A DNA stretch of 11,065 nt. Source: Metabacillus rhizolycopersici. Lineage in GTDB: Bacteria; Bacillota; Bacilli; Bacillales; Bacillaceae. The notes below the pieces were generated by a model. It was not told the origin of the DNA and searched no databases. It worked only from the letters and a program-made list of their open reading frames with translations. Every line of letters starts with the position of its first letter. The stretch's first letter is position 1. Positions 128 to 10,869 of this stretch are shown here, piece after piece. The stretch is taken from the NCBI RefSeq assembly GCF_020075705.1, contig NZ_JAIQUM010000111.1, positions 1 through 11,065 on the forward strand, in the 5' to 3' direction. The position numbers were made by a program, and so were the translations under genes.

Positions 128-142
128 TTAGAGGTGGAAATA

Positions 143-356: not shown

Positions 357-445
357 AAAAAAGGACATTTTCTTTATGCCCTAGTTCCTGGTATCGGCCC
401 CACCTACGCCAGATACTATGACGGCCACACATGCCATCCAACCCA
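357..445 (-). ncRNA. Candidate small RNA, about 90 nt
   Basis: A near-consensus SigA promoter on the minus strand (474-479 and 451-456) would start a transcript near 444-446. About 65 nt downstream is a hairpin (GGGCAT pairing with ATGTCC, 376-381 and 363-368, 7-nt loop) followed directly by six U residues (362-357), a textbook intrinsic terminator. The enclosed sequence is strikingly GC-rich for this plasmid and can form internal pairs such as GTATC/GATAC. The reading frame here lacks a ribosome site, and its first ATG lies within a few bases of the transcription start, so an RNA is more likely than a protein. Its target is unknown; it is not antisense to any annotated gene. Confidence 0.5.
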
Positions 446-450
446 TTATC

Positions 451-479
451 ATTATAATGGAAAGCGCTTACATTTTCAA
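451..479 (-). promoter_or_regulatory. SigA promoter with internal cre-like operator
   Basis: Read on the minus strand: TTGAAA, 17-bp spacer, TATAAT. The spacer contains TGTAAGCGCTTTCC (459-472), which fits the CcpA cre consensus TGWAANCGNTNWCA at all but the last base and has a perfect AAGCGCTT core. Its position between -35 and -10 is typical of repression by CcpA. The promoter is seen directly; catabolite control is inferred. Confidence 0.6.
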
Positions 480-587
480 AGGTTAATAGAAAACAAGTTT
501 CGACATAATTAAACTCAGGTAACTTTATTCAAGTTTTATTTGCAGGATTTGAAAATTATCTGTTTAATTAATAGATTATAGCGACCG

Positions 588-606
588 TTACGATTGGGAG
601 GTAACG
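588..606 (+). promoter_or_regulatory. Inverted repeat spanning the ribosome site of the DUF3967 gene
   Basis: CGTTAC and GTAACG form 6-bp arms around a 9-nt loop that holds most of the GGGAGG ribosome site (596-601) of the gene starting at 609. It may be an operator for the MerR-like product or an mRNA hairpin that limits translation. The arms are short, so chance is not excluded. Confidence 0.35.
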
Positions 607-608
607 AT

Positions 609-1163
609 ATGGAAAATTACTCAACTAAAGATATAGCCAATATGACCGACATAGCAGAAAGTACAGTTAGGAAATACGCTCAATTATTAGAAGGTAATGG
701 TTATGTTTTTAACAGGAATATCAGTGGTTATCGTATCTTTACAAAACAAGATGTAGAAGTGTTTCTCGAGTTCAAAAATGTTTCTAAAAGTGATAATTCC
801 GTTGAGGAAACAGCGAATATCATAGCGAGTAAATATACCGTAAAACCCAATACAGCTGAAGACGATGTATCGGCTAATATGCAGTTAGGTCAAGGGATAG
901 AACGTGATATGCTGACTGATTTAATAAAAAAAGTAGATGTATTAACCGATATGAATGAAAAACAGACAAAGTTTAATGAAGAACTACTCAAACGACTAGA
1001 CCAACAACAGAAATACATAGATCAACGCTTAGAGGTAAGAGATCAGAAGTTAATTGAATCATTAAGACATTCACAAGAAGAACGACAAGCACTATTACAA
1101 ATAGCAGCTGCACAAAAAGAAGAGAAAAAGAAAGGATTATTTGCTCGACTATTCGGCAAGTAA
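609..1163 (+). CDS. MerR-type HTH protein with coiled coil and DUF3967-like C-terminus
   Basis: A 184-aa DNA-binding protein. The start at 609 is chosen over the TTG at 594 because GGGAGG (596-601) sits 7 nt upstream and residues 1-55 then form a clean MerR-like winged HTH (YSTKDIANMTDIAESTVRKY, followed by a GYRIFTKQDV wing). Residues about 100-150 are a coiled coil rich in Q, E, K and L. The C-terminus (LRHSQEERQALLQIAAAQ, then KKKGLFARLFGK) matches the DUF3967 tail typical of Bacillus plasmid proteins. The last dozen residues look like a basic amphipathic helix. The overall plan resembles RacA-like DNA-binding/anchoring proteins, so a role in plasmid maintenance or segregation is plausible. 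That role is inferred; transcriptional regulation is the alternative. Confidence 0.8.
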   Translation: MENYSTKDIANMTDIAESTVRKYAQLLEGNGYVFNRNISGYRIFTKQDVEVFLEFKNVSKSDNSVEETANIIASKYTVKPNTAEDDVSANMQLGQGIERDMLTDLIKKVDVLTDMNEKQTKFNEELLKRLDQQQKYIDQRLEVRDQKLIESLRHSQEERQALLQIAAAQKEEKKKGLFARLFGK

Positions 1164-1223
1164 AAAAGAGGGATTGGAATTACAGACCTCCTTAGGGAAT
1201 TTCCAAGAATAGATCAGCAGCAT

Positions 1224-1436
1224 CTACTTTATTGATTTTATTTCTTCGCTAGTATCCTTCTCCCTTGCTCTATTTATTGCAACCAATGCGATTGTTAGTA
1301 TGAGTAAACTAAGCGTATTTACCGTGTATCCATTTACTTGTATGTATATTTCTTTTGTGTAGATAAAGCGAATAGCAAACCATATTCCAAATAAGACTAA
1401 TAGGTCGTTATGTATATCGAAGATTTTTCTAGCCAT
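1224..1436 (-). CDS. Small membrane protein, 70 aa
   Basis: The minus-strand ATG is preceded by AAAGGAG with a 7-nt gap, a strong ribosome site. The protein has two hydrophobic segments (about residues 10-27 and 40-55) separated by a short polar loop, and ends in a charged tail (NRAREKDTSEEIKSIK). It is convergent with the DUF3967 gene and divergent from the mobilization region. Family not recognised. Its size would suit a membrane-active peptide, an immunity protein or an exclusion-type factor, but nothing in the sequence selects among these. Confidence 0.65.
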   Translation of the reverse strand: MARKIFDIHNDLLVLFGIWFAIRFIYTKEIYIQVNGYTVNTLSLLILTIALVAINRAREKDTSEEIKSIK

Positions 1437-1503
1437 GTCTATACTCCTTTTATTATTAGTTCACCAGTATTATTTACTTTTTTTGGTAATCTATACGTTG
1501 ATA

Positions 1504-1742
1504 AACCTTTAGGTTAGTTACTGATTGCACCTTTAAGGTGCATTTGTTGCCTTTATGGCAACATTGGTTTTAGTCGTTTTGTATGGTGATCCAACGTGTT
1601 GACGTTGGCGGGGGTGGTGGGGCGAGTAGCCCTACGGTTTTTTGTTTTAGCACGCTTGCGTGCTTGCCTGCTTACAGGCAACATAGCGTCGCAGACCACA
1701 CGACTTTACGCATGTAAAGTATAGTGTGCTATACTTTACATG
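1504..1742. repeat. Array of consecutive short palindromes ending in oriT
   Basis: The 360-bp gap before the relaxase holds a run of separate hairpins: AACCT/AGGTT (1504-1515), TGCACCTT/AAGGTGCA (1526-1542), TGTTGCC/GGCAACA (1545-1563), CCAACGT/ACGTTGG (1591-1608), GTAG/CTAC (1626-1635), AGCACGC/GCGTGCT (1649-1664), TTGCCTG/CAGGCAA (1664-1681), ACTTTAC/GTAAAGT (1703-1720) and the 14-bp oriT stem (1711-1742). All arms are perfect and the loops are mostly 1-5 nt. The last two belong to oriT; the others are unexplained. They could fold on single-stranded DNA during transfer or replication, for example as a single-strand origin or a primase entry site. Confidence 0.75.
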
Positions 1743-1746
1743 GAAG
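1701..1746 (+). other. oriT of MobV/pMV158 type
   Basis: A perfect 14-bp inverted repeat (arm CATGTAAAGTATAG at 1711-1724, partner at 1729-1742) surrounds the loop TGTG. The core TAGTGTG followed by CTATACTTTACATGG closely matches the pMV158 oriT as I remember it, where MobM nicks after TAGTGTG. The equivalent nick here is between 1728 and 1729. An overlapping repeat ACTTTAC/GTAAAGT (1703-1720) corresponds to the alternative stem seen in pMV158-like origins. It lies directly upstream of its cognate relaxase gene. Confidence 0.88.
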
Positions 1747-1764
1747 TTTTTGCCGGATTATAAT
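1735..1764 (+). promoter_or_regulatory. Promoter of the relaxase gene, overlapping oriT
   Basis: TTTACA (1735-1740) and TATAAT (1759-1764) are separated by 18 bp. The -35 box lies inside the right arm of the oriT stem, so relaxase binding at oriT would be expected to repress its own transcription, as reported for MobM of pMV158. Confidence 0.65.
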
Positions 1765-1799
1765 GATAAATAGAGGTGTACATAGAGGGTGGTGGAGAC

Positions 1800-3029
1800 A
1801 TGAGCTTTGCGATATGTCGGATGGAGAAAATGAAGTCTCATGATTTAAAAGGGATGCAGTTTCATAATCAGAGAGAAAGGGAGAGTAAAACGAATCCTGA
1901 TATTGATCAAGATCGTTCCCATTTGAATTATGATTTGGTGAATGCTGAAAAAATTGATTACAACAAACAAGTCAAAGAGATCATTGAGAGTCAGAAAACT
2001 GGAACAAGGAAAACCAGGAAGGATGCCGTCCTGGTGAATGAGTTGTTGATCACATCTGATCGAGCGTTTTTTGATCGTCTAGATCCAGCTGAAGAAAAGC
2101 GATTCTTTGAAGAGAGCTATAAATTGTTTGCGGATCGATATGGCGAGCAGAATGTCGCGTATGCGATGGTCCATATGGATGAAAAAACGCCCCATATGCA
2201 TTTAGGGGTTGTTCCCATGCGTGATGGGAAGCTGCAAGGGAAGAATGTTTTTAATCGGGTGGAATTGCAGTGGATTCAGGATGAGTTTCCAAAACATCTG
2301 CAGAAGCAAGGATTTGATGTAGAGCGAGGGGAAAAGGGATCGGATCGAGAGCATTTAACGACCCAACAATTTAAAGCAAAGACGCTAAAAGAAAAAGTTG
2401 AAGGATTAGAACATACGTTACATGAGAAACAAGCAGTAAAAGAGGAAATGGAAATATCCATCAAGGATATTGAAAATCGCTTAAGCGATTTGGGGAAGTC
2501 ATTAGATCATGTGAAAAAGTTGGACGAGATTGAAGTGAAGCAAGAAAAGAAGATGGGTTTATTTGGGTCTGACAGGGTCATATTGGAGCGAAAGGACTTT
2601 GAGGGTATTGAAACCTTAGCGAAAGCTTCAGAAGTGCTTAGAACGGAAAATAGGCAGCTTAAAATAGAAAATCAAAAACTTCATGATGGAAAAGACAAGC
2701 TTGTAAGGGAACGTGACTTGGCCAGAAATGAAAATGTAGAGTTGAAGAAAGAAAATAAGAAGCTGAATAAAGAGAATGACTTTTTGAAACGAACATTGGA
2801 ACGAGTAAAGGAATTGTATCAGGAAAAATTGCCTGAATTGGCGAACATCATCGGATATGTGAAGGCAAGTATTTTAGACAAAGCGAAGGAAAAGTTGTTA
2901 AAGCGATATTTTGTCGATGATGAAATCAAAGGGGCTCAAAAATTTGCCCTGGATAAACAGGAGCAAGAAAAGCAGATCCAACCGACTCGAAAGGGAAATC
3001 GTGATCGTAATGATGGTCTGGAAAGATAA
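1800..3029 (+). CDS. mob: MobV family relaxase (plasmid mobilization protein)
   Basis: A 409-aa relaxase that nicks oriT and pilots the plasmid strand into a recipient with help from another element's type IV secretion machinery. I start it at ATG 1800 (MSFAICRMEKMKSHDLKG), which aligns with MobM, rather than at the GTG at 1776. His22 in the FHNQRE motif corresponds to the MobM catalytic histidine; SHLNY ends at the conserved Tyr44. The metal-binding motif III, HMDEKTPHMHLG, lies near residues 125-136. The N-terminal 200 residues are the catalytic domain. Residues about 200-370 are a long charged coiled coil, as is usual in MobV proteins. It follows oriT with no accessory mob genes. Confidence 0.95.
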   Translation: MSFAICRMEKMKSHDLKGMQFHNQRERESKTNPDIDQDRSHLNYDLVNAEKIDYNKQVKEIIESQKTGTRKTRKDAVLVNELLITSDRAFFDRLDPAEEKRFFEESYKLFADRYGEQNVAYAMVHMDEKTPHMHLGVVPMRDGKLQGKNVFNRVELQWIQDEFPKHLQKQGFDVERGEKGSDREHLTTQQFKAKTLKEKVEGLEHTLHEKQAVKEEMEISIKDIENRLSDLGKSLDHVKKLDEIEVKQEKKMGLFGSDRVILERKDFEGIETLAKASEVLRTENRQLKIENQKLHDGKDKLVRERDLARNENVELKKENKKLNKENDFLKRTLERVKELYQEKLPELANIIGYVKASILDKAKEKLLKRYFVDDEIKGAQKFALDKQEQEKQIQPTRKGNRDRNDGLER

Positions 3030-3067
3030 AAAGTTGTATTAGATCAATTTAAGGAGAGTGTGTAAAC

Positions 3068-3277
3068 ATGAAAAAAATGTTGATTTATAAAGAAAATGGA
3101 GAATTTGTTATAGAAAGAGTAAGTGAATTTAATCATGATTCTAAACAGAATTTTATAAGTGAACAGGGTTTTTTAGAAGGATTGCAGTCTTATCAGCAAG
3201 TAATGGCAGAATACGAATTAGAGGTATCTGATGAATTATGGTCATTGGTCATTAATTTTTTAAATAAACCAATGTGA
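3068..3277 (+). CDS. Hypothetical protein, 69 aa
   Basis: The ATG lies downstream of AAGGAG (3051-3056), 38 bp after the relaxase stop, so it is probably co-transcribed with mob. The product (MKKMLIYKENGEFVIERV...) is soluble and mixed alpha/beta in character, with no cysteines and no membrane segment. Not recognised. No terminator is visible between it and the relaxase gene, and none clearly follows it before the next promoter at 3330. Confidence 0.65.
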   Translation: MKKMLIYKENGEFVIERVSEFNHDSKQNFISEQGFLEGLQSYQQVMAEYELEVSDELWSLVINFLNKPM

Positions 3278-3329
3278 ATTGTTTTTGATCAGTTGTCGAT
3301 TTTTCATGCAATAAAATTCGCTCATTTAC

Positions 3330-3358
3330 TTGATTTAAGTTACTGAAAATAATATAAT
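3330..3358 (+). promoter_or_regulatory. Strong SigA promoter
   Basis: TTGATT (3330-3335), 17-bp spacer, TATAAT (3353-3358). It drives the small gene at 3421 and probably the zinc-ribbon pair at 3607-4307. A short inverted repeat (TGATTA/TAATCA, about 3358-3378) covers the likely transcription start and could be an operator. Confidence 0.75.
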
Positions 3359-3420
3359 GATTATAGTAACGTTAATCAAAAACAAGATGGAAAAACAAGT
3401 GAAAATGGGAGGTTTTTAAA

Positions 3421-3591
3421 ATGGATCATGTGATTGAAAGTTTAAGAGAGTGGTTAAGAATTTATGAGGATGATGCTCCAGGAGACAGAGATGAAAAAGC
3501 AATCAGGCATATAAAACAAGCGATTAATGAGTTAAATAAATACTATGGTGATTCAAAAATGAAACGAGAATCGAATGATTGGTCTGACTAA
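3421..3591 (+). CDS. Small acidic/helical hypothetical protein, 56 aa
   Basis: ATG 3421 has an excellent ribosome site, GGGAGG (3407-3412) with an 8-nt gap, and sits just downstream of a near-consensus promoter. The product begins MDHVIESLREWLRIYEDDAP and is helical, with no cysteines. It is followed after 15 bp by the zinc-ribbon/RHH gene, so the three genes to 4307 look like one operon. Family not recognised. Confidence 0.65.
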   Translation: MDHVIESLREWLRIYEDDAPGDRDEKAIRHIKQAINELNKYYGDSKMKRESNDWSD

Positions 3592-3606
3592 TAGAGGGGA
3601 AAGTAG

Positions 3607-3897
3607 GTGGTATTAGTGCAAAACTTTACTTGTATGAGCTGTGGTAAAGAATTAAAACTAGAAAACAAGATTTTTGAAAAAGCATATAAGGATCATGAGA
3701 AATGCTTAGATTGTCGTCCAAAGCATGGAGGGTATCGTGAGGGGGCAGGTCGTCCTTCTATTGGGGTAACAAAAAAGGTTTCAGTTACTTTACCAGCTGA
3801 CATTTGGAATGAAATTGGGGAAGAAAAAGGTGATCTCACAATGTCGGCTTATTTTAGAGAGTTGGCTTTGAATCGATCAAAAGGTAAGGAATCATGA
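3607..3897 (+). CDS. Zinc-ribbon / ribbon-helix-helix DNA-binding protein, 96 aa
   Basis: Cys9-Cys12 and Cys33-Cys36 form two CxxC pairs, a zinc-ribbon-like N-terminus. Then comes GGYREGAGRPSIG and a CopG-like ribbon-helix-helix (KKVSVTLPADIWNEIGEEKG followed by the helix MSAYFRELALNRS). The start is GTG at 3607 with GAGGGG upstream; a second GTG at 3616 is possible. The GAGRP linker followed by an RHH fold is common in phage and plasmid regulators. A role as a repressor of its own operon or of copy number is plausible but inferred. Its stop overlaps the next start (ATGA), implying translational coupling. Confidence 0.72.
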   Translation: MVLVQNFTCMSCGKELKLENKIFEKAYKDHEKCLDCRPKHGGYREGAGRPSIGVTKKVSVTLPADIWNEIGEEKGDLTMSAYFRELALNRSKGKES

Positions 3898-4307
3898 TTT
3901 GTTCTTACTGTGGTTCTGAAAATGGACAATATGCTAAAGCATGTGGGTTTTGTGATGCCTTTTTGAAAAAGGAACGCCCAAAAATGAGAGAATTTGTTTA
4001 CTTAGATCAAGTAGAATTACCTTTTGGGGAGCTTTCGCAATTTCACACTTATGATTTATTGATTTTGCTTCGATTGGTGAGAGAAGAACGGTCAAAATGT
4101 TATAACCTTATGAGAACGGTTCAGAAGGGCTCAGAATTGATCGAAATTGATTCTGACACATTAGTCTTTTCGGAAAAAGAATATAGGTGCTATACGGCAC
4201 GTATGAAGGTTATAGAGGGTATCTTAATAGATAGAATGGGGTACAAGCCTAAAAGAGTAGATAATAAGCTGTTAGAGAGTTTGAGAGTGAAGATCGAAAA
4301 TGGGTAG
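3894..4307 (+). CDS. Zinc-ribbon hypothetical protein, 137 aa
   Basis: The start codon overlaps the previous stop by 4 bp. Cys3-x2-Cys6 and Cys17-x2-Cys20 form an N-terminal zinc ribbon. The remaining 110 residues are soluble, with a helical core (HTYDLLILLRLVREERSKCY) and a C-terminal segment around YTARMKVIEGILIDRMGYKP. I do not recognise a characterised family, although proteins of this type occur in Bacillus phage and plasmid contexts. Coupling with the zinc-ribbon/RHH gene suggests that the two products act together. Confidence 0.7.
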   Translation: MICSYCGSENGQYAKACGFCDAFLKKERPKMREFVYLDQVELPFGELSQFHTYDLLILLRLVREERSKCYNLMRTVQKGSELIEIDSDTLVFSEKEYRCYTARMKVIEGILIDRMGYKPKRVDNKLLESLRVKIENG

Positions 4308-4354
4308 AAAAAAGGTGATTTTATTGTTATTGTCGAAAGATAGAAAAATGAGAA

Positions 4355-4386
4355 AAACCGCCTATGCTTTGGACGGCTGGCGGTTT
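4355..4386. terminator. Hairpin terminator, best on the minus strand
   Basis: AAACCGCC (4355-4362) pairs with GGCGGTTT (4379-4386). On the minus strand the stem is followed by TTTTT-CTC-ATTTTT, a good intrinsic terminator; on the plus strand the trailing T run is short. It closes the 3894-4307 gene in one direction, and could end an antisense transcript coming from the leader of the winged-helix gene in the other. Confidence 0.6.
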
Positions 4387-4401
4387 CTCGAAAAAATGCA
4401 A

Positions 4402-4488
4402 GGGATTAGTCCCTTTATTAATTTAAATATTGGTATTTATATTCTATCATATTGGGACTAATTCCTGCTAGATAGGGAGAGGAATTAG
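4402..4488 (+). promoter_or_regulatory. Structured leader of the winged-helix/Rep candidate
   Basis: Three related segments occur. A is GGGATTAGTCCC (4402-4413). B is GGGACTAATTCCT (4454-4466). C is AGGAATTAG (4480-4488), abutting the ATG. B can pair with A (with one bulge) or with C (9 perfect pairs, CTAATTCCT at 4458-4466). In the B-C form the ribosome site GGGAGAGG (4475-4482) is partly buried in the stem. This is the arrangement of a switchable leader. Alternatively, A and B may be DNA operator copies flanking an AT-rich promoter. Confidence 0.5.
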
Positions 4489-5166
4489 ATGAAAAAAGAT
4501 AACATAGTAGATTTTGGACAAGCTGAAAAAAATGCTAGAAAAAGAGATTTTGAGAAAGATTCAGAAGCAAGAGAGAAAACTGAAGAATTGAAAAAATCAT
4601 TATTAGAGCAATTAAAAGAGCTTACTGGGGAAGAACATTTTATTGGAACCAGTAAAGATCCATTTGCAGGGGAGCCATTTAATCAGACCATGCATAGAAA
4701 TTTAGATTTGTTAACCCAAATTGATTATTTAACTCAAGCAGAAGAAAGCTTTTTGTTTAGAACTCAAGCATATTTAGAATTTAAAAGTAATGTGATTATT
4801 TGCAGAGAAGATAAATTTAAAAAGAAACGTAAAAATGTTGAAGATGATTTTGAGCTTCCAAAGGCTGCAACTGTTTCAGATATTGCTGAAATGATAGGAA
4901 AATCAAGACAAAAAACGTCTGCTATTATGAATAGTTTAAAAGATAAAGAGATTTTACTTAATCCGGAAGGGGCAGGACAGACCATTGAAAATGGAAGAAC
5001 TGTAAGCCCTAGAACATGGATTGTGAACCCTTATATTATGATTTGTGCACCTAGAAAAAATAATGTTCAATTAGATAAGCTAACTATGAGATTATTTCAA
5101 CACTCTTTAAAAAACCTTAAGGATCAGAATGGTAAAAAGGTGAGTTTACCTGCAAGATTTTTTTAA
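4489..5166 (+). CDS. Winged-helix DNA-binding protein, candidate plasmid replication initiator
   Basis: A 225-aa protein. Residues 1-50 are charged and helical. Residues 70-105 (NLDLLTQIDYLTQAEESFLF onward) begin the fold. Residues 128-151 are a clear helix-turn-helix (TVSDIAEMIGKSRQKTSAIM), followed by a wing and the segment RTWIVNPYIM (175-184). The order HTH, wing, then a VNP motif recalls RepL-type Firmicutes plasmid initiators and related MarR-like wHTH replication proteins, but it is longer than classic RepL (about 160 aa). It has a structured leader upstream, and a terminator and direct repeats downstream, which is the context of a rep gene. The Rep call is inferred; a plain regulator remains possible. 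Confidence 0.6.
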   Translation: MKKDNIVDFGQAEKNARKRDFEKDSEAREKTEELKKSLLEQLKELTGEEHFIGTSKDPFAGEPFNQTMHRNLDLLTQIDYLTQAEESFLFRTQAYLEFKSNVIICREDKFKKKRKNVEDDFELPKAATVSDIAEMIGKSRQKTSAIMNSLKDKEILLNPEGAGQTIENGRTVSPRTWIVNPYIMICAPRKNNVQLDKLTMRLFQHSLKNLKDQNGKKVSLPARFF

Positions 5167-5177
5167 TAAAAGATTTT

Positions 5178-5209
5178 AGATCGTATCTAAAAAATGATAC
5201 GGTCTTTTT
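5178..5209 (+). terminator. Intrinsic terminator of the winged-helix gene
   Basis: AGATCGTATC (5178-5187) pairs with GATACGGTCT (5196-5205), with one G-U pair and an 8-nt loop, and is followed by a run of T. It lies 12 bp after the stop codon. Confidence 0.82.
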
Positions 5210-5228
5210 GTTATTTGGAATTATTTAG

Positions 5229-5280
5229 GTGTCACGAAAAGGTGACAAAAACACCTCAAAGTGTCACGAAAAGGTGACAC
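5229..5280. repeat. Two 19-bp direct repeats, each an interrupted palindrome
   Basis: GTGTCACGAAAAGGTGACA occurs at 5229-5247 and again at 5261-5279, 32 bp apart (three helical turns). Each copy is itself an inverted repeat (TGTCAC/GTGACA). Placed just after the candidate rep gene, they look like binding sites for a dimeric protein, most simply an iteron-type origin element bound by the winged-helix protein. Confidence 0.75.
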
Positions 5281-5524
5281 CCAAAAAAGTCCAATAAACT
5301 CAGTCGTACCAAGGCTTTAAACCACATTTATAAACATCTCCCTATTATCATTATTGTTTAATAGCAATTCGCCCTTTGTTTTGGAATACTAAATTTTGTA
5401 TTTTTTCGTGATTGCCTTAAAGGCTAAAAGGTTGCCATTAAGGCAACCAAAATTTCTTATCTGTAAGTGGGTGTACCCTTTGTAAAGCTACAAGTTATAC
5501 TGTTTAAAAAAGGAGAGCTGTGAA
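5281..5524. other. Non-coding AT-rich region with two palindromes
   Basis: No gene is seen. The region after the repeats is AT-rich, which would suit an unwinding region. It contains GCCTT/AAGGC (5414-5424) and GGTTGCC/GGCAACC (5430-5448). The latter resembles the palindrome at 1545-1563 (TGTTGCC/GGCAACA), so this may be a small copy of the palindrome clusters found elsewhere on the plasmid. Confidence 0.45.
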
Positions 5525-5770
5525 ATGAGAACCTGTTTCATGTGTAAGGATACAATAGACAATACAGTCAGTAATTCTCGTTTAAGGGAAATAAAAAAGG
5601 CAGCTAAAGATTTTCCTGGATCGAAAAAGGAAGAAATGAATCAAATTAAAGTACTTACATTAAAATTCGCTAACAAAAAAATCTGTGAGTATTGTTACTT
5701 AAAAGAAATGGCCTTCTTGACAACAGTTATGAGGATCAAAGCTATGAAGGATAAAGAAGCAAGTTCTTAA
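5525..5770 (+). CDS. Small zinc-finger-like hypothetical protein, 81 aa
   Basis: ATG 5525 is preceded by AAGGAG (5510-5515). Cys4-x2-Cys7 and Cys54-x2-Cys57 form two CxxC pairs (CFMC and CEYC), which could bind one zinc ion. The segment between is basic and helical (SRLREIKKAAKDF). Family not recognised. It is the third small protein here with paired CxxC motifs, after the two at 3607-4307, but it has no RHH domain. No close terminator follows; the large palindrome at 5921-6015 lies 150 bp downstream. Confidence 0.65.
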   Translation: MRTCFMCKDTIDNTVSNSRLREIKKAAKDFPGSKKEEMNQIKVLTLKFANKKICEYCYLKEMAFLTTVMRIKAMKDKEASS

Positions 5771-5920
5771 AAAGGAACTTTTTGAGATAGTCAAAATGAA
5801 GTCTCTATTAAGCGTTTTTTATTGAATAATGAATCGAAAATATAAGGTTAATAATAGGTAAATAAATTTCTCTTTTATTTTGGTTTTGAAATGGAGATAC
5901 AGTCTATCACACAGTCATTT

Positions 5921-6015
5921 GTGACTCCTCCCTTAACGTCGTAAACAGTAGAAGACCTCGACCACACGTACATTGTGATCGAGGTCTTCTACTACTGGTT
6001 TTAGGTCGGAGTCAC
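5921..6015. repeat. Large imperfect palindrome / cruciform candidate
   Basis: Inner arms at 5947-5966 and 5974-5993 match over 20 bp with one mismatch and a 7-nt loop (core AGTAGAAGACCTCGA). Outer arms GTGACTCC (5921-5928) and GGAGTCAC (6008-6015) share nearly the same centre. Neither strand has a T run directly after the stem, so it is a poor terminator. It lies in the 375-bp gene-free stretch before the toxin-antitoxin operon. A single-strand origin, a recombination site or a protein-binding cruciform are possibilities. Confidence 0.7.
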
Positions 6016-6031
6016 TATAAGAGTGTGAATG

Positions 6032-6060
6032 TTGATGAATTATTAGTTAAGTGATATTCT
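6032..6060 (+). promoter_or_regulatory. Promoter of the toxin-antitoxin operon
   Basis: TTGATG (6032-6037), 17-bp spacer, TATTCT (6055-6060). It lies 86 bp before the antitoxin start. Autoregulation by the AbrB-like antitoxin is expected for such operons, but no clear operator is visible. Confidence 0.6.
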
Positions 6061-6145
6061 GAATTAATAAGTAAAGAAGTAAAGAAACCAAGAAATAAAA
6101 AAATAAGGAAATTTGGTATATAAATAGAGTGGAGGGACATAAATT

Positions 6146-6532
6146 ATGATGATGGCGAAAAAAGAATTGGAGCGATTGACGATGCCTAAATCAAGACGTC
6201 CAAGAAAAATAAAACGAATTGCAGTTTCAAGTAAGAGACAAATTAGCATTCCAAAAGAATTTTATGAAACATTAAACATTGGTGAAGAAGTCACACTAGA
6301 GCTACATGGGAATCATTTAGTTATAAAGCCTGTTCATGAGGGGTTTGATGATTTTTCTGAAGAAATTTTAGCTGATCTTATTAACGAAGGTTACACCGGT
6401 ATGGATTTGATGGTTGAATTTAAAAATCGTAAGGCACAGTTAGGATCTGCGATAGATTCTCTCATCTCTGAAACTGCTAATACAGAAACTATAGAAATTG
6501 ATGATCTTTTTGAGGTCGATGATGATGAGTGA
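6146..6532 (+). CDS. AbrB/MazE-type antitoxin, 128 aa
   Basis: Residues about 20-65 form a SpoVT/AbrB DNA-binding domain (KRIAVSSKRQISIPKEFYET, then GEEVTLELHGNHLVIKP). The rest is acidic and probably flexible, ending EIDDLFEVDDDE, as expected for a toxin-wrapping segment. Three ATGs (6146, 6149, 6152) follow GGAGGG; the first has the best spacing. It overlaps the toxin gene and precedes it, the usual antitoxin-first order. It should neutralise the toxin and repress the operon. It is longer than simple MazE proteins because of the acidic C-terminus. Confidence 0.85.
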   Translation: MMMAKKELERLTMPKSRRPRKIKRIAVSSKRQISIPKEFYETLNIGEEVTLELHGNHLVIKPVHEGFDDFSEEILADLINEGYTGMDLMVEFKNRKAQLGSAIDSLISETANTETIEIDDLFEVDDDE

Positions 6533-6848
6533 TTTTCAATTAAAAGTATCACCAGTAGCAAAGAAATTCTTTAAAAAACTAAAAGACAAGAAATTGGAAC
6601 AGAAGTTTCGTTTAGCTTTACAAGATATCCAGCTAGATCCATTCAGTGTAGGTGAACAAAAAAAGGGTGATTTAGCTGGTGTTTATGGTTATGACATCAA
6701 ACATAATGGTATTAACTACGAAATAGCTTATAGTATCCAAGAAGATGATGAAGGAAACCTAGTATTAGTTATTTTAGCTGGAACTAGAGAACAATTTTAT
6801 AAAGAATTAAAAGTTTACATAAAAGCATCGAAAATAAATAAAAGTTAA
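6525..6848 (+). CDS. RelE/ParE superfamily toxin
   Basis: A small basic protein with the RelE/ParE pattern: FFKKLKDKKLEQKFRLAL helices, a DPFSVGEQKKGDLAGVYGYD strand region, then YEIAYSIQEDD and the C-terminal AGTREQFYKELKVY, where Arg and Tyr residues are typical of mRNA interferases of this superfamily. Three in-frame ATGs (6519, 6522, 6525) follow GAGG at 6512-6515; all overlap the antitoxin stop. I use 6525, and 6522 is equally good. Ribosome-dependent mRNA cleavage is the likely activity; gyrase poisoning (ParE-like) is the alternative. The AbrB-RelE pairing is less common than RelB-RelE but known (PrlF-YhaV type). Confidence 0.85.
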   Translation: MSDFQLKVSPVAKKFFKKLKDKKLEQKFRLALQDIQLDPFSVGEQKKGDLAGVYGYDIKHNGINYEIAYSIQEDDEGNLVLVILAGTREQFYKELKVYIKASKINKS

Positions 6849-6861
6849 TTTAGGTTTATCC

Positions 6862-6916
6862 GGTTAACCATTGCTATAAGTGGGTTTATTAGTTAACTAA
6901 TGTTATAGGAAGATTT
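6862..6916 (+). repeat. Two degenerate dif-like half-copies
   Basis: GGTTAACCATTGCTATAAG (from 6862) and AGTTAACTAATG...TATAGGAAG (from 6891) repeat the arms of the dif-like site at 6925 with about 30-34 bp periodicity but shortened centres. They look like decayed or auxiliary copies. The similarity is visible but weak. Confidence 0.4.
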
Positions 6917-6924
6917 TCAACTTC

Positions 6925-6952
6925 AGTTAACATAATTGCAATTATAGGTAAT
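6925..6952 (+). other. dif-like XerC/XerD recombination site 1
   Basis: A 28-bp sequence with XerD-side arm AGTTAACATAAT, 6-bp centre, and XerC-side arm TATAGGTAAT. The first arm fits the Firmicutes dif consensus (AGTTWACATAAT) completely and the second at about 8 of 10 positions. It lies between the toxin gene and its terminator. Proposed function: target of host CodV/RipX (XerC/XerD), for multimer resolution or module exchange. Confidence 0.6.
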
Positions 6953-6990
6953 AAAAAACCATCAGATTCAGCAGGAACTGATGGTTTTTT
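6953..6990 (+). terminator. Terminator of the toxin-antitoxin operon
   Basis: AAAAAACCATCAG and CTGATGGTTTTTT form a perfect 13-bp stem with a 12-nt loop and built-in A and T runs, so it should work in both directions. It directly abuts the dif-like site. Confidence 0.88.
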
Positions 6991-7064
6991 GTTAGATTTT
7001 AAGTTCAGAAAGTCGTACTAATTCAACTTGGCCTAATGAATCATTTTTCTTGATCTCACAAGTA

Positions 7065-7369
7065 GGCCCAGTACCAGCGTTCCTGTAACGAGGGGCAAAG
7101 TAAGTAACAGAAAAGCGAAGCTACGGAAAAATCTAAGTGTATCATAAAGGTTTTTAACCAGGTATTGTTACAAGAAAATTATGTGACAGTATTTTGTTAC
7201 ACCGTATTTAGCGCATTTTGGTGGTAAATACGGTATGACTGAGCCCTGTATCTAAACAGGTCGTTTTTGTTACGGTATTATCTCTGTAAAAATTATCCGA
7301 TTCTTTGGTACAATACTCTATTTTTAGGGCCTACTTTGCCCCTGGTCGCAGCTACGCTGGTACTAGGCC
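7065..7369. repeat. 38-bp imperfect inverted repeat enclosing about 230 bp
   Basis: The arms are 7065-7102 and 7332-7369. They share GGCC-N-AGTACCAGCGT and GGGGCAAAGTA, separated by 11 unmatched bases. The interior has no gene. It contains a 10-bp hairpin (ACCGTATTTA/TAAATACGGT, 7201-7234) and repeated GTATT-GTTAC words. The 38-bp arms recall Tn3-family ends, yet the expected terminal GGGG is not at the outer edge and the flanks (AAGTA, AAGTT) are only near duplicates. It may be a miniature element or a structured origin. Confidence 0.6.
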
Positions 7370-7451
7370 AAGTTAAGGTTTTCATGTTTCTCTATCAGTC
7401 TTATAAACTTATTTTTTCGATGCAACAAGAATCTAGTAATGAATAAAATCT

Positions 7452-7479
7452 AGTCACCATAAAATCAATTATAGGTAAT
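7452..7479 (+). other. dif-like site 2, with degenerate XerD arm
   Basis: The last 14 bases (CAATTATAGGTAAT) are identical to site 1 at 6925. The XerD-side arm AGTCACCATAAA has three differences from the consensus. Like site 1 it is followed by an A run and then by a hairpin-like AAAAAGC/GCTATTTTT stretch. It is in the same orientation as sites 1 and 3. Confidence 0.45.
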
Positions 7480-7587
7480 AAAAAAGCTATTTTTAGAGGG
7501 GCTCTCTTAATTAACTTTTAAGTTTCTTCGTTTGATTTTAATGTTAGGTGGAAAGGATATAGTTGAAAAGTAAAAAGGAGGAATCAA

Positions 7588-7764
7588 ATGGAAACTAGTA
7601 TGAGTGTTGAAGAGGTTGTGAATCAAATTTCTGAACTAGTGCAAAGAGAAGGAAAGTCACTTCGTAAAAAGCAAGTAAAGAAGTCAAATCCAGAGCTTAT
7701 GAAAAATGCATTGTATTATTTTCCAAGTTGGGAAACTGCAATTGAACAGAGTATTGGATCTTAA
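7588..7764 (+). CDS. Orphan 58-aa peptide resembling a homing-endonuclease-associated repeat
   Basis: A perfect AAAGGAGG ribosome site lies 6 nt before ATG 7588. Residues about 14-56 (ELVQREGKSLRKKQVKKSNP, then ALYYFPSWETAIEQS) follow the pattern of the homing-endonuclease-associated repeat: a glycine, a basic LRKKQV-type segment, NPELM, an aromatic residue, and SWxxAIE. That small helical module is usually found in several copies in phage or intron proteins, whereas here a single unit is the whole gene. It may be a small DNA-binding protein. Family assignment is from pattern recognition only. A terminator follows at 7853. Confidence 0.6.
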   Translation: METSMSVEEVVNQISELVQREGKSLRKKQVKKSNPELMKNALYYFPSWETAIEQSIGS

Positions 7765-7852
7765 TCTTCAACCATACATAAAATATTTATTTTCCAAATT
7801 GATGTATAATCCTTTAGTTTTTGCAAAAATTAAAAATACTATTGATCGAACC

Positions 7853-7887
7853 AAAGAAACTGCCTGACGGGAAAGGGCGGTTTCTTT
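7853..7887 (+). terminator. Intrinsic terminator after the 58-aa gene
   Basis: AAAGAAACTGCC (7853-7864) pairs with GGCGGTTTCTTT (7876-7887) around an 11-nt loop, followed by CGTTTTG. It ends the 7588 transcript and could also stop readthrough from the minus-strand gene at 8088. Confidence 0.78.
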
Positions 7888-8022
7888 CGTTTTGTAGAGA
7901 TAAAATTTAAGTAAGTAATAAAAAGATAAACGGTGGGGGAAAATACAATTGTAATAGGGCTGAAGACACTCTATAACTCATCTTAGTTTAAAAAACTATA
8001 GATTGGATATCACCTTTCATTG
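7888..8022. other. Gene-free stretch between two terminators
   Basis: I see no protein gene. Because a second plus-strand terminator follows at 8023 with no gene between them, this stretch might encode a short RNA, but I find no convincing promoter. Confidence 0.25.
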
Positions 8023-8057
8023 AGAGCAGACTGCAATGCCACAGTTTGCTCTTTTTT
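8023..8057 (+). terminator. Intrinsic terminator
   Basis: AGAGCAGACTG (8023-8033) pairs with CAGTTTGCTCT (8042-8052), including one G-U pair, with an 8-nt loop and a run of T after it. It points in the plus direction although the nearest gene (8088) is on the minus strand. It therefore either ends an unseen plus-strand transcript or insulates the convergent units. Confidence 0.72.
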
Positions 8058-8087
8058 ATGTTTCAATATCGTTAACTGAAACCATGC

Positions 8088-8675
8088 TTATTTTTCATAC
8101 TTCTCTAGAAAGTCGGTTAATGCTAAATGGAATACATCTGACTTATTGATCCTCTCCGTTTCACAAAACTTATCTAAACGTTTACCAATGATACGATCAA
8201 TAACAATAGTCTTTCTTGTTTTGTCACTTTGTGGCAACTGTTTGACACGGTCATAAAGACTTAACTCATTGCTCTGTGTAGTTGAGGCAACCTCTTTCCA
8301 CGATTTAAGCATTTCCTTAATCATATGGATTTCATCTTGGGTGAATTGCTCATGAACAGTAGGTGAATGATGTATGAATTCTTTATTACTCTCTGTGAAT
8401 TTCTTATTACTTTGTGTGAAAGGTGTATGAACCTTAGGTGAACTAGATTTCACATAATCAAAAATACTTTTATCAAGGGGTTCTTCACCTTCTCCAATAA
8501 AAAACCAACCCTTTTGACCAGAGTTTCTAAATTCATATCCAGCCTCTTTTAATGCGTTTCTAAATGGTTTTTCACTTATGCCAGGTATTTGTTTAGCCAG
8601 ATCGCCTATCTTTACTCCTTCTTGTGCCAATGCTTCTAAAATGCTTCGTATTAATGCTTTTTGATCTACACTCAT
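8088..8675 (-). CDS. HTH / ribbon-helix-helix plasmid protein with iterons in its gene
   Basis: A 195-aa protein with GAGGGTG 8 nt before its ATG. Residues 5-62 look like a winged HTH (ILEALAQEGVKIGDLAKQIP then GQKGWFFIGEGE). Residues 78-115 are low-complexity, with two related decapeptides (SPKVHTPFTQ and SPTVHEQFTQ). Residues 153-192 resemble a ribbon-helix-helix (RKTIVIDRIIGKRLDKF, then KSDVFHLALTDFL). The decapeptides are encoded by DNA repeats that recur upstream of the gene, a layout seen where a replication initiator binds iterons inside its own gene. It may be a second initiator, a copy-control protein or a centromere-binding protein. Family not firmly recognised. Confidence 0.6.
   Translation of the reverse strand: MSVDQKALIRSILEALAQEGVKIGDLAKQIPGISEKPFRNALKEAGYEFRNSGQKGWFFIGEGEEPLDKSIFDYVKSSSPKVHTPFTQSNKKFTESNKEFIHHSPTVHEQFTQDEIHMIKEMLKSWKEVASTTQSNELSLYDRVKQLPQSDKTRKTIVIDRIIGKRLDKFCETERINKSDVFHLALTDFLEKYEK
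8341..8369. repeat. Iteron-like repeat, copy 1 (in the coding region)
   Basis: A 29-bp unit of the form GTGAA-TTGCTCATGAAC-AGTAGGTGAATG. It shares about 20 positions with copy 2 at 8416, including the ATGAAC core and TAGGTGAA. It encodes the second decapeptide of the HTH/RHH protein on the minus strand. Confidence 0.55.
8416..8444. repeat. Iteron-like repeat, copy 2 (in the coding region)
   Basis: A 29-bp unit with GTGAAAGGTGTATGAAC and TAGGTGAA, 75 bp from copy 1 and thus in the same codon phase. It encodes the first decapeptide. Confidence 0.55.
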
Positions 8676-8723
8676 AAATTATTCACCCTCATTTCACTTA
8701 AACTCATGTATGTATTATTCGAT

Positions 8724-8752
8724 GTGAAATGTGTATGACCTTCAAGTGAGCT
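8724..8752. repeat. Iteron-like repeat, copy 3 (upstream of the gene)
   Basis: GTGAAATGTGTATGA-CCTTCAAGTGAGC matches copy 2 at about 22 positions when one gap is allowed. It lies outside the coding region, in the probable promoter of the minus-strand gene, so its conservation is not explained by protein sequence. Confidence 0.5.
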
Positions 8753-8796
8753 TACATTAAAGTATTAAAATAAATGGAGACTAAAAAGATCGAGAG

Positions 8797-8997
8797 CAAG
8801 GTTAAAACCTTGTGAAAGATCCTCCCTCCCTTTTCTCCAAAATTCATTTTGGGGAAGGGTGGGCGGAGATAAACATGCTATCACGCATGGTAAAAGCCTT
8901 GCTACGCAAGGTCTAAAACGGATATCATATCTTACTAGAATGATATCTATTGTTGTTTCCCCTATATGTAACAAGGGGTTAGGGGGCTATCACCCCT
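8797..8997. repeat. Second array of consecutive palindromes
   Basis: Seven hairpins in 200 bp: CAAGGTT/AACCTTG (8797-8812); a long GC-rich stem with inner CCAAAA/TTTTGG and outer CCTCCCTCCC against GGGTGGGCGG (8821-8866, two mismatches); CATGC/GCATG (8874-8889); CCTTGC/GCAAGG (8897-8911); GATATCAT/ATGATATC (8921-8947); CCCCT/AGGGG (8959-8978); AGGGG/CCCCT (8981-8997). The style matches the array before oriT, but the sequences differ. A reading frame across it (8859-9080) has no ribosome site and no protein-like character. Function unknown; a lagging- or single-strand origin or an RNA scaffold is possible. Confidence 0.7.
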
Positions 8998-9060
8998 GTT
9001 TTCTCTTAGTGAACAGAAGAAGGGGCTCTAGTCAATATAAGCGATGTTATCGGCATATGA

Positions 9061-9090
9061 AAAAGGATCTTCGACTGTGAAGATCCTTTT
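9061..9090. terminator. Bidirectional hairpin terminator
   Basis: AAAAGGATCTTC (9061-9072) and GAAGATCCTTTT (9079-9090) form a perfect 12-bp stem with a 6-nt loop. It insulates the membrane-protein operon from the palindrome array and suggests that a transcript enters from the array side. Confidence 0.75.
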
Positions 9091-9211
9091 AGGCTGCTTG
9101 TTTAATTAAAAAGCGCCCTATAGTTGAAGATAGGACTGAAAAACAACTCTACTAGTACATATTATTTCACACTTAGTAAATATTAAACTCATTACAAATT
9201 ATAAGGACAAT

Positions 9212-9676
9212 ATGACTATGACTGATAAGTTAGAAGCTATTCTGTGGAGTATAGCTCTCCCAGGCTTTGCTCAGTTATTAAACAGAAAATTTGTTAAAGG
9301 TATAATTTTTATTTTTTTGGAGTTCCTCGTTAATGTTAATAGTCATTTTAATACTGCGATTTTGTATAGCTTTCAAGGAAACATTAGAGAAGCAATCGAA
9401 GCAACAAATTACCAATGGCTAATGTTTTATCCCTGTCTATATATGTTTGCTATGTGGGATGCATATAAAGATGCCGAAGGAGAAACTCCACCTTATTCAT
9501 ATCTTCCTTTTGTATTTGGAGCTTATTTTGTAACAATTGGGCTTATGTATTCACCTTCACTAAAGTTAGGACAAATATTATTAGGTCCTGTGTGGCTTCC
9601 AATTTTATCTTTAATTCCAGGTTTATTGGTAGGGAATTTTATTAAGTGTATGTTAATGCGTATTAAAGTTCGATGA
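9212..9676 (+). CDS. Multi-pass membrane protein, 154 aa
   Basis: Starts at ATG 9212 or 9218 after AAGGA (9203-9207). The N-terminus LEAILWSIALPGFAQLLN has the PGxxQLLN motif found in small TM2/DUF5683-like membrane proteins. Hydrophobic segments lie near residues 24-40, 70-84, 97-113 and 120-147, giving about four helices. The loop WDAYKDAEGETPP between the second and third is polar. It is followed after about 46 bp by the DUF3231 gene with no terminator between, so the two are probably co-transcribed. I know similar Bacillus membrane proteins but no established function. It looks like cargo rather than a replication or transfer gene. Confidence 0.72.
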   Translation: MTMTDKLEAILWSIALPGFAQLLNRKFVKGIIFIFLEFLVNVNSHFNTAILYSFQGNIREAIEATNYQWLMFYPCLYMFAMWDAYKDAEGETPPYSYLPFVFGAYFVTIGLMYSPSLKLGQILLGPVWLPILSLIPGLLVGNFIKCMLMRIKVR

Positions 9677-9722
9677 TAGTGGTTATTTTTTATAGTAAAT
9701 ACAATAAATGGAGGCTTATATT

Positions 9723-10724
9723 ATGACTGAAAAACAGGCTTTGAGTTCAAGTGAATTAGGGACATTGTGGATGACCTATCAGCAAAAAACTATGGTACAA
9801 AGAATTTTTGAATACTTTATAGAACAAGCAGATGACAAACGAGCTAAAGAAATTATGCAAGATTTTCATATGAAAGTTATTAACTATATTGAAGATATAA
9901 AAAACATCCTCAAAAATGAAGGTGCTGTAATTCCCGTTGGATTTACAGAACAAGATGTCAATACTGGCGTTCTTAAGCTATATGACAACATGTTTGATAT
10001 CATGTTTCTTCGACTTAATGTAGAAATAAGCATGGGATTACATACACTTCATTTAAACATGGCATACCGAAAAGATATCGTCCTTCTTTATAAGGAATTA
10101 ACTGCATTTACCCAGAGTGTTTACGATGAATGTGTAGACTATCTACAAGAAAAAGATGTTTTACCACGTCCTCCTGCTGTATCCATGCCAAAGACTATAG
10201 AGTTTGCAAATGGAACCAATTATATGAGTGGTTTTAACTTGTTTTCTGAAAAACGAGCATTGAATACAGTTGAAGTAGCACATTTATACAATGCAATTGA
10301 AACAAATATTCTTGGAATGCAAATGATAACGGGGTTCGCACAAGTGGCAAATGAACCTGAAGTGAAAAAATATTTCATAAAAGGAAAGGAATTAGCGAAA
10401 AAAACTGTAACTGACTATACACAATTATTTCTTCAGAGTGATATACAACCACCTTCAACATGGGGGGCAAATGCAACAGACTCAAAGGTATCTCCTTTTT
10501 CAGATAAACTAATGATGTACTGTACGAGTATGCTTTGTAGCTTTGGTTTAGGAAGCAATGCTTTAGGAACAGCATTTAGTTTACGAAATGACCTCCCATT
10601 AAAAATGGTTGGTACAGCAAAAGACGTATTAACTTATGGGCGTGACGGTGGAAAAATCATGGCGAAAAATGGTTGGCTAGAAGAGCCACCTCAAATGCAA
10701 GATAGGAACGATTTAACTAAATAA
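9723..10724 (+). CDS. DUF3231 family protein, 333 aa
   Basis: The start at 9723 is preferred over the ATG at 9708 because GGAGG (9710-9714) lies 8 nt before it. The protein has two homologous helical halves (about residues 8-150 and 170-315). Each opens with a similar motif (LSSSELGTLWMTYQQKTMVQ; LNTVEVAHLYNAIETNILGM), as in two-repeat DUF3231 proteins with a ferritin-like/CotF-like four-helix architecture. The glycine-rich end includes SMLCSFGLGSNALGTAFS. The family is common in spore-forming Bacillaceae and a spore-associated role has been suspected, but the function is unproven. It is the second gene of a two-gene operon closed by the terminator at 10774. Confidence 0.85.
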   Translation: MTEKQALSSSELGTLWMTYQQKTMVQRIFEYFIEQADDKRAKEIMQDFHMKVINYIEDIKNILKNEGAVIPVGFTEQDVNTGVLKLYDNMFDIMFLRLNVEISMGLHTLHLNMAYRKDIVLLYKELTAFTQSVYDECVDYLQEKDVLPRPPAVSMPKTIEFANGTNYMSGFNLFSEKRALNTVEVAHLYNAIETNILGMQMITGFAQVANEPEVKKYFIKGKELAKKTVTDYTQLFLQSDIQPPSTWGANATDSKVSPFSDKLMMYCTSMLCSFGLGSNALGTAFSLRNDLPLKMVGTAKDVLTYGRDGGKIMAKNGWLEEPPQMQDRNDLTK

Positions 10725-10773
10725 TCAGATGATATAAATGACATATAGGGAAATGAATAATATCCAGCATCTT

Positions 10774-10809
10774 GAAAAAACTACCTTACCCCTAAAAGGT
10801 AGTTTTTTC
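10774..10809 (+). terminator. Terminator of the DUF3231 operon
   Basis: GAAAAAACTACCTT (10774-10787) and its exact complement (10796-10809) form a 14-bp stem with an 8-nt loop and A/T runs at both ends. It lies 50 bp after the stop codon. Confidence 0.88.
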
Positions 10810-10841
10810 CCCTTTTTGGTATGTATAGAGCATGCAAAATC

Positions 10842-10869
10842 AGTTAACATAATAACAATGATAGGAAGT
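10842..10869 (+). other. dif-like XerC/XerD recombination site 3 (best match)
   Basis: The XerD-side arm AGTTAACATAAT is a complete fit to the Firmicutes dif consensus. The XerC-side arm GATAGGAAGT fits at 9 of 10 positions. The total length is exactly 28 bp with a 6-bp centre. It lies between two terminators and in no gene. This is the copy most likely to be active with host recombinases. Confidence 0.68.

What the first reader, a model, noticed from the sequence alone, without database searches (positions are those of the whole stretch)
6925..10869. Several directly repeated dif-like sites may delimit exchangeable modules (pdif-like organisation)
Related 28-bp sites at 6925, 7452 and 10842 face the same way, with two shortened copies at 6862 and 6891. 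Sites 1 and 2 share an identical 14-bp XerC half. They separate a backbone with a toxin-antitoxin pair, a gene-free inverted-repeat segment, and a cargo segment with the DUF3231 operon. In Acinetobacter, pdif sites flank toxin-antitoxin and resistance modules; I know of no well-described counterpart in small Bacillus plasmids.
Basis: partly seen in the sequence, partly recalled or inferred. Interest (0 to 1): 0.82.

Follow-up and report, generated by a model that had tools for sequence, protein, structure and literature searches.

The report
Swappable gene modules between dif-like sites
A small Bacillaceae plasmid, and many related Priestia plasmids, appear to be built from interchangeable gene modules that meet exactly at copies of the short site bacteria use to separate their chromosomes, a form of gene swapping so far described in Acinetobacter.

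Summary
Related Priestia plasmids carry the site by the dozen: 355 in 11 large plasmids against 6 in reversed sequence. In 199 Bacillales genomes 182 have at most one exact match. DNA homology between plasmids starts or stops inside these sites far more often than chance (137 of 1662 block ends; rotated mean 10.3, maximum 24). Twenty-two segments (14 groups after merging homologous ones) have both ends at two different sites (rotated mean 0.08). In the window, relatives' homology breaks at three of the four sites. Best explanation: host XerC/XerD recombine the sites between co-resident plasmids, swapping modules of one to a few genes. It works like the Acinetobacter dif-module (pdif) system but differs: sites run in one direction in long arrays, spacers are usually not identical, crossovers seem to fall inside the 6-bp spacer, and 171 of 296 strong sites have a 15-bp palindrome beside the XerD arm. 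Recombinase dependence is inferred, not shown. My literature searches found no report in Bacillus or Priestia. New variant of a known kind.

The parts
6925..6952 (+). dif-like site 1: AGTTAACATAA-TTGCAA-TTATAGGTAAT
   Evidence: 29.2 bits; homology of 5 Priestia plasmid records begins at 6942, the first base of its XerC half
7452..7479 (+). dif-like site 2: AGTCACCATAA-AATCAA-TTATAGGTAAT
   Evidence: 23.9 bits; no breakpoint seen here
   Evidence: 16.2 bits; homology with Peribacillus asahii and Priestia filamentosa plasmids begins at 9028 and 9027
10842..10869 (+). dif-like site 4: AGTTAACATAA-TAACAA-TGATAGGAAGT
   Evidence: 27.1 bits; homology with 6 P. megaterium plasmid records, 4 of them versions of one plasmid or containing it, ends at 10872-10875
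10822..10836 (+). palindrome TGTATA-N3-TATACA with 2 mismatches, 5 bp before the XerD half of site 4
   Evidence: the same element, up to 3 mismatches, precedes 171 of 296 sites in related plasmids; the other three window sites have 7 mismatches
6862..6913 (+). two 23-bp shortened site-like strings (6862, 6891), possibly decayed sites
   Evidence: not listed at 7 bits or more
6953..7451 (+). module A between sites 1 and 2: no recognised gene (one 59-aa ORF without Pfam match); a hairpin followed by T's and a 43-bp inverted repeat (7060-7102 / 7332-7374)
7480..9029 (+). module B between sites 2 and 3: 58-aa ORF 7588-7764 (+) and 195-aa ORF 8088-8675 (-) with a weak ribbon-helix-helix match below cut-off
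9058..10841 (+). module C between sites 3 and 4: 154-aa ORF 9212-9676 and DUF3231 protein 9708-10724
1..6924 (+). backbone (continues from 10870 round the circle): MobV relaxase 1776-3029, replication-protein homologue 4489-5166, MazE-like antitoxin 6146-6532 and ParE-like toxin 6525-6848

Best explanation
The four 28-bp sites are plasmid-borne relatives of the chromosomal dif site. Each has an 11-bp XerD arm, a 6-bp spacer and an 11-bp XerC arm. The host's XerD and XerC bind and recombine them (inferred). Recombination happens mostly between plasmids in one cell: a crossover at one pair of sites fuses two replicons and a second crossover at another pair separates them, so that the DNA between the two sites has changed plasmid (inferred). 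Because every exchange keeps the XerD-to-XerC direction, sites pile up in same-direction arrays (the arrays are shown, the reason is inferred). The result is a shared pool of modules, often of one or a few genes, each running from an XerC half to the next XerD half, in Priestia and related Bacillaceae plasmids (shown for Priestia). The window is a small member with a backbone carrying rep, mob and toxin-antitoxin genes and three accessory modules.
For: 355 sites of at least 13 bits in 11 Priestia plasmids (1.67 Mb) against 6 in reversed sequence. 137 of 1662 unique homology-block ends lie inside a site, rotated mean 10.3, maximum 24 of 100. With sites of at least 18 bits and five threshold settings, 38-139 ends lie inside sites against 0-17 in windows displaced by 120-400 bp. 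22 segments of 376-2430 bp, 14 groups after merging homologous ones, have both ends within 8 bp of two sites, rotated mean 0.08, maximum 1 of 50; the two sites face the same way in 22 of 22. A BCCT-transporter module of 4.1 kb is shared by P. megaterium and P. aryabhattai plasmids at 98%, stopping within a site at both ends, with different sequence beyond. In strain ATCC 14581 an 11-kb and a 75-kb plasmid share a module at 97.8% whose left edge is an identical 28-mer with unrelated DNA before it. 38 of 38 sites in 100 kb of one plasmid are intergenic although 63% is coding. In 199 Bacillales genomes only 6 have 4 or more exact matches; the reversed pattern gave 13 matches in all. 7 of 12 records encode no tyrosine recombinase, so it must act in trans there; XerD is in 6 of 6 genomes tested. 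Window: breaks at sites 1, 3 and 4.
Against: No recombination was observed directly. Spacers of neighbouring sites are identical hardly more often than random (2.2% of 231 pairs against 1.7%), and recently exchanged sites mostly have non-identical spacers, whereas the Acinetobacter reaction needs identical or nearly identical ones (passages of PMC13141974). Of the 26 blocks with both query ends at sites, the partner also ends at two strong sites in 10, at one in 8 and at none in 8. No clean empty-versus-occupied pair was found; the one candidate has group II intron-like sequence at its edge. A cointegrate in ATCC 14581 is joined over a 6.6-kb repeat, not at a site. In the window no break was found at 7452, the partners at 6942 that were read show no XerD half, and the DUF3231 homology (9097-10733) stops 39 and 109 bp inside its module. 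Homologues of module B end away from sites. The 11 plasmids were picked through homology, not at random. XerC was not searched for by its own model.
Confidence: 0.84

Rival explanations
1. The sites are only dimer-resolution sites (cer/psi/dif-like) that help each plasmid stay monomeric; module boundaries there are incidental.
For: Plasmids are known to use Xer sites for this (PMC11705084 introduction); the palindrome beside the XerD arm could be an accessory-protein site.
Against: One site would do; the 11 plasmids carry 14-45 and the window four; homology breaks fall inside them about 13 times more often than by rotation; segments are bounded at both ends.
Confidence: 0.06
2. Modules excise as circles by recombination of their two flanking same-direction sites and reinsert elsewhere, as integron cassettes do.
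For: Sites are in direct orientation with few switches (32 of 285 adjacent pairs, shuffled mean 103); modules run from XerC half to XerD half; many hold a single gene.
Against: Neighbouring spacers are rarely identical; no empty/occupied pair found; in Acinetobacter, direct sites with the same centre gave no deletion and exchange was intermolecular (passages of PMC11705084).
Confidence: 0.25
3. The sites are transcription signals (terminator- or promoter-linked repeats), and breaks fall there because they are intergenic and recombination there does little harm.
For: All 38 sites of the annotated stretch are intergenic; other intergenic DNA also has more breaks than coding DNA (2.61 against 0.13 per kb); hairpins with T-runs lie near some sites; the gene on the XerD side faces the same way as the site in 25 of 38.
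Against: Break density in sites is 3.2 times that of other intergenic DNA in the same stretch, though on only 9 breaks (1064 against 35,665 bases); over all 11 plasmids breaks peak inside the site and fall to background within about 40 bp; the gene on the XerC side shows no preference (17 same, 21 opposite); the sequence is that of dif.
Confidence: 0.04
4. A plasmid-encoded tyrosine recombinase, not host XerC/XerD, is the enzyme.
For: 5 of 12 records encode PF00589 proteins.
Against: 7 of 12 do not, including the two with the most sites, W02 and W12; no integrase domain among the window ORFs scanned; the arms resemble those of putative host dif sites.
Confidence: 0.08

Closest known systems
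Acinetobacter dif modules / pdif (pXerC/D, xrs) system of Rep_3/OrfX plasmids
   Same: Plasmid modules bounded by dif-like sites with XerC arm, 6-bp spacer and XerD arm; toxin-antitoxin and varied cargo; content shuffles between plasmids (PMC13141974 abstract and introduction).
   Different: There, C and D modules alternate so that flanking sites are inverted, and spacers of reacting sites are identical or nearly so; here sites run in the same direction for tens of kilobases, up to 45 per plasmid, spacers usually differ, and 171 of 296 strong sites have a 15-bp palindrome beside the XerD arm. Different phylum and replicons. The importance statement of PMC13141974 calls the system unique to Acinetobacter.
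Plasmid dimer-resolution sites (cer, psi) and chromosomal dif
   Same: Same bipartite site; XerD arm differs from that of putative host dif sites mostly by one base (AGTTAACATAA against AGTTTACATAA).
   Different: Many sites per plasmid and module exchange; 12 of 12 putative chromosomal dif sites have a TATATA or TATACA spacer and 7-9 of 12 mismatches to the palindrome.
Integron gene-cassette arrays
   Same: Long same-direction arrays of small units, many single-gene, with unrelated functions.
   Different: No PF00589 integrase on 7 of 12 records; the site is dif-like, not attC (the attC comparison is from general knowledge).

Membership tests
Acinetobacter dif module (pdif) system | modules separated by sites with XerC arm, 6-bp spacer, XerD arm | tested here: met
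Acinetobacter dif module (pdif) system | gene content changes at these sites between related plasmids | tested here: met
   in the window at 3 of 4 sites
Acinetobacter dif module (pdif) system | C and D modules alternate (inversely oriented flanking sites) | tested here: not met
   all 4 window sites on +; 32 switches in 285 adjacent pairs; 22 of 22 bounded segments lie between same-direction sites
Acinetobacter dif module (pdif) system | reacting sites have identical or nearly identical spacers | tested here: inconclusive
   identical in 5 of 28 and 8 of 31 recently exchanged site pairs, above the 1.5% baseline but a minority
Acinetobacter dif module (pdif) system | Rep_3/OrfX backbone in Acinetobacter | tested here: not met
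   the 27 matching records are all from Bacillota genera, chiefly Bacillaceae; the replication-protein homologue has no Rep_3 match
Acinetobacter dif module (pdif) system | recombination depends on XerC/XerD | not testable with these tools
   XerD present in 6 of 6 genomes tested is only consistent
Plasmid dimer-resolution site (cer/psi type) | a single Xer site per replicon | tested here: not met
   4 in the window, 14-45 in the 11 large relatives
Plasmid dimer-resolution site (cer/psi type) | accessory protein-binding sequence beside the core | tested here: inconclusive
   palindrome at fixed distance in 171 of 296 sites, 0 of 1184 control offsets; no protein identified
Integron | integron-type integrase | tested here: not met
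   no PF00589 on 7 of 12 records; none among the window ORFs scanned
Integron | attC sites that fold as single strands | not tested
   not folded here

The most novel reading that the evidence does not exclude
Bacillaceae have their own module-exchange system built on host XerC/XerD: same-direction arrays of dozens of dif-like sites with an accessory palindrome, in which sites with different spacers recombine and the crossover falls at the middle of the 6-bp spacer. The left three bases travel with the XerD side and the right three with the XerC side. That implies a Holliday junction resolved at its centre rather than by a normal second strand exchange. It would be a Gram-positive functional counterpart of integrons without a dedicated integrase.
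Probability: 0.45. Interest if true: 0.9.

Novelty: new variant of a known kind. Interest (0 to 1): 0.8.

Why it matters
Dif modules have been called unique to Acinetobacter (importance statement of PMC13141974). Denser, same-direction arrays in Bacillaceae show that Xer sites can organise plasmid gene exchange in another phylum. This would explain the mosaic plasmids of Priestia megaterium, an industrial species, and includes a fosB-family fosfomycin-resistance gene between two sites on a P. flexa plasmid. Priestia and Bacillus subtilis are easy laboratory organisms, so how dif modules move becomes directly testable, including whether spacer identity is needed.

Tried and rejected
Empty-versus-occupied search over the 11 plasmids (blocks of at least 120 bp and 88%): 1 candidate, rejected because its edge is group II intron-like sequence. 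Cointegrate of ATCC 14581 plasmids (301,273 = 143,745 + 157,528): joined over a 6.6-kb repeat, so no support. Record NZ_CP120607.1, which appears to join the 11-kb plasmid to the 75-kb plasmid's sequence: a poly-T stretch at one join in a linear record looks like an assembly artefact; not used. Identical spacers between adjacent sites as a sign of excision: not seen. My first count of 22 bounded modules counted shared modules more than once; merged they are 14 groups. Rfam scan of the window: two matches far below gathering score. Literature: ten searches; by listed titles and abstract starts none reports dif modules in Bacillus or Priestia. The pdifFinder paper (Brief Bioinform 2023) was seen only as a reference-list entry; I recall that it surveys several genera, so earlier notice of single sites cannot be excluded.
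Full report
What the window is. The first and last 127 bases are identical, so it is a circular plasmid of 10,938 bp. No genome is held for it. 27 plasmid records match it, chiefly from Priestia (8) and Peribacillus (6). The backbone has a MobV relaxase, a homologue of a Priestia replication protein, and a MazE-like/ParE-like toxin-antitoxin pair. Cargo includes a DUF3231 protein.

The sites. They have the layout of 12 putative chromosomal dif sites from Bacillales genomes: XerD arm AGTTTACATAA, 6-bp spacer, XerC arm. A model was built from 250 unique sites found with a loose pattern in 11 Priestia plasmids. It finds a fourth window site at 9030-9057 (16.2 bits). That site is independently supported. 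A Peribacillus asahii plasmid has a clear site (24.9 bits) followed by similar sequence and preceded by different sequence. A P. filamentosa plasmid shows the same with a site-like string whose spacer seems one base longer.

The same site in relatives. An exact-match pattern found 284 matches in 16 genomes of one family against 1 for the reversed pattern, with up to 74 in one genome; 3 of the 16 have none. In 199 genomes drawn from the order, 86 have none, 107 have one to three (96 of them exactly one) and 6 have four or more; the reversed pattern gave 13 matches in all. Among the places listed, which are a part, the single matches are by eye mostly dif with a TATATA-like spacer. In the 11 plasmids the model finds 355 sites of at least 13 bits against 6 in reversed sequence. 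The model was trained on these plasmids, so the window, the small plasmids and the pattern counts are the independent checks. A 66-base composite site hits 269 of 72,556 plasmid records, 268 of them Priestia. Sites also cluster on chromosomes in some Priestia-type genomes, for example on 5.2- and 5.3-Mb contigs that also hold a dif.

Breakpoints. The 11 plasmids are two with homology to the window and nine of the 118 records hit by a site-rich stretch of one of them; a tenth, a cointegrate, was fetched but left out of the statistics. All-against-all comparison gave 1662 unique homology-block ends (blocks of at least 200 bp and 85% identity). 137 lie in positions 1-28 of a site; 100 rotations of the site map gave a mean of 10.3 and at most 24. 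For homology on the XerD side the largest 5-base bin is 10-14 (41 ends), with 36 more at 25-34. For homology on the XerC side it is 0-4 (36 ends), with 20 at 15-24 and 50 spread over -20 to -1. At five threshold settings 38 to 139 ends fall in sites of at least 18 bits, against 0 to 17 in same-size windows displaced by 120-400 bp. 22 segments have both ends within 8 bp of two different sites, against a mean of 0.08 and a maximum of 1 in 50 rotations. Merging homologous and nested segments leaves 14 groups; the two flanking sites face the same way in 22 of 22; the partner plasmid's ends also lie at two strong sites in 10 of 26 blocks, at one in 8, at none in 8. Within one annotated 100-kb stretch, breaks per kb are 8.46 in sites (only 9 breaks), 2.61 in other intergenic DNA and 0.13 in coding DNA. 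All 38 sites there are intergenic. The gene on the XerC side faces the same way as the site in 17 and the other way in 21; on the XerD side 25 and 13.

Examples. A 4.1-kb BCCT-transporter module is shared at 98% by P. megaterium plasmids and a P. aryabhattai plasmid; the spacers and the sequence beyond differ at both ends. In P. megaterium ATCC 14581 a cell-wall-hydrolase module is on both an 11-kb and a 75-kb plasmid (97.8%). Its left edge is an identical 28-mer preceded by unrelated DNA; its right edge lies 156 bp beyond the next site. On a 10.5-kb P. flexa plasmid a fosB-family gene sits between two same-direction sites.

In the window. Homology of five Priestia records starts at 6942, the first base of the XerC half of site 1; two of the five have the same length and identity and may be one plasmid. 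Four of the five were read at that place and none shows a recognisable XerD half. Two records start at 9027-9028, at site 3. Six records end at 10872-10875, at site 4; four of them are versions of one plasmid or contain it. No break was found at site 2. The DUF3231 homology in two large plasmids covers 9097-10733 and does not reach the sites, and relatives of module B end away from sites.

Where the crossover falls. Pairs of sites from different plasmids were sorted by whether upstream and downstream flanks match: 78 unique pairs match upstream only, 56 downstream only, 14 on both sides; 389 pairs in between and pairs within one plasmid were left out. Identity falls to background across the spacer. 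Among recent one-sided pairs with the XerD side shared, 5 of 28 have identical spacers; of the other 23, 12 share the left three bases (chance 13%, P 7.5e-6) and 1 the right three. With the XerC side shared, 8 of 31 are identical; of the other 23, 8 share the right three bases (chance 4.7%, P 6.5e-6) and 4 the left three. These P values ignore kinship among the pairs. The window's sites 1 and 2 fit: their unbroken identity begins at position 15, the middle of the spacer. This suggests crossovers between sites with different spacers and is the least certain part of the account.

Accessory palindrome. TGTATA-N3-TATACA lies at -19 to -5 in 171 of 296 strong sites with up to 3 mismatches, against 0 of 1184 control offsets. 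The 12 putative chromosomal dif sites have 7-9 of 12 mismatches there. Of 157 copies with at most one mismatch in the 11 plasmids (26 in shuffled letters), 113 are followed by a site; of the other 44, 30 were printed and several are followed by what looks like a damaged site. Site 4 of the window has it with 2 mismatches; the other three have 7. Its function is unknown; an accessory protein site is my guess.

Orientation. Sites run in long same-direction stretches: 32 switches in 285 neighbouring pairs, shuffled mean 103. Direction opposes the local GC skew (77 of 296 agree; rotated mean 145, none of 1000 rotations as low). Intermolecular exchange at same-direction sites would preserve such polarity; why it follows skew is unexplained.

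Enzyme. 7 of 12 records encode no tyrosine recombinase and XerD is present in 6 of 6 genomes tested; XerC was not searched for by its own model. Host XerC/XerD acting in trans is most likely. This is inference.

Comparison with what is known. In Acinetobacter, modules alternate so that flanking sites are inverted, and reacting sites have identical or nearly identical spacers (PMC13141974: abstract, introduction and passages). There exchange runs through cointegrates between plasmids rather than excision (PMC11705084: introduction and passages). The Bacillaceae system shares the principle but fails the alternation test, so I file it as a new variant and not as a member. Ten literature searches listed no report of it; the library lacks most subscription journals.

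Noticed in passing
plasmids NZ_CP085432.1 ~17978, NZ_CP072475.1 ~91952, NZ_CP085446.1 ~46470 (W13, W07, W14): Group II intron-like sequence begins right after the first 6 bases of the XerD half in three sites with the upstream palindrome; these introns may home to dif-like sites. The intron label is my reading of the sequence, not a database match.
   Followed up: partly
window 7060-7102 and 7332-7374: 43-bp inverted repeat, 81% complementary, 229 bp apart, in module A, which has no recognised gene; one arm matches four Cytobacillus plasmids at 92%. Function unknown.
   Followed up: no
window 333-505: Stretch without annotated feature in relatives, conserved at 86-94% in six Peribacillus plasmid records; holds a 56-aa ORF without Pfam match.
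   Followed up: no
11 Priestia plasmids, 296 sites: Direction of the sites is opposed to local GC skew (77 of 296 agree, rotated mean 145).
   Followed up: partly
NZ_CP035095.1 (W08): 301,273-bp record equals the sum of two plasmids of the same strain; the fusion runs through a 6.6-kb repeat.
   Followed up: yes
L003 (NZ_CP120596.1) 4948-6106: fosB-family fosfomycin-resistance gene and a neighbouring small gene each lie between same-direction dif-like sites.
   Followed up: partly
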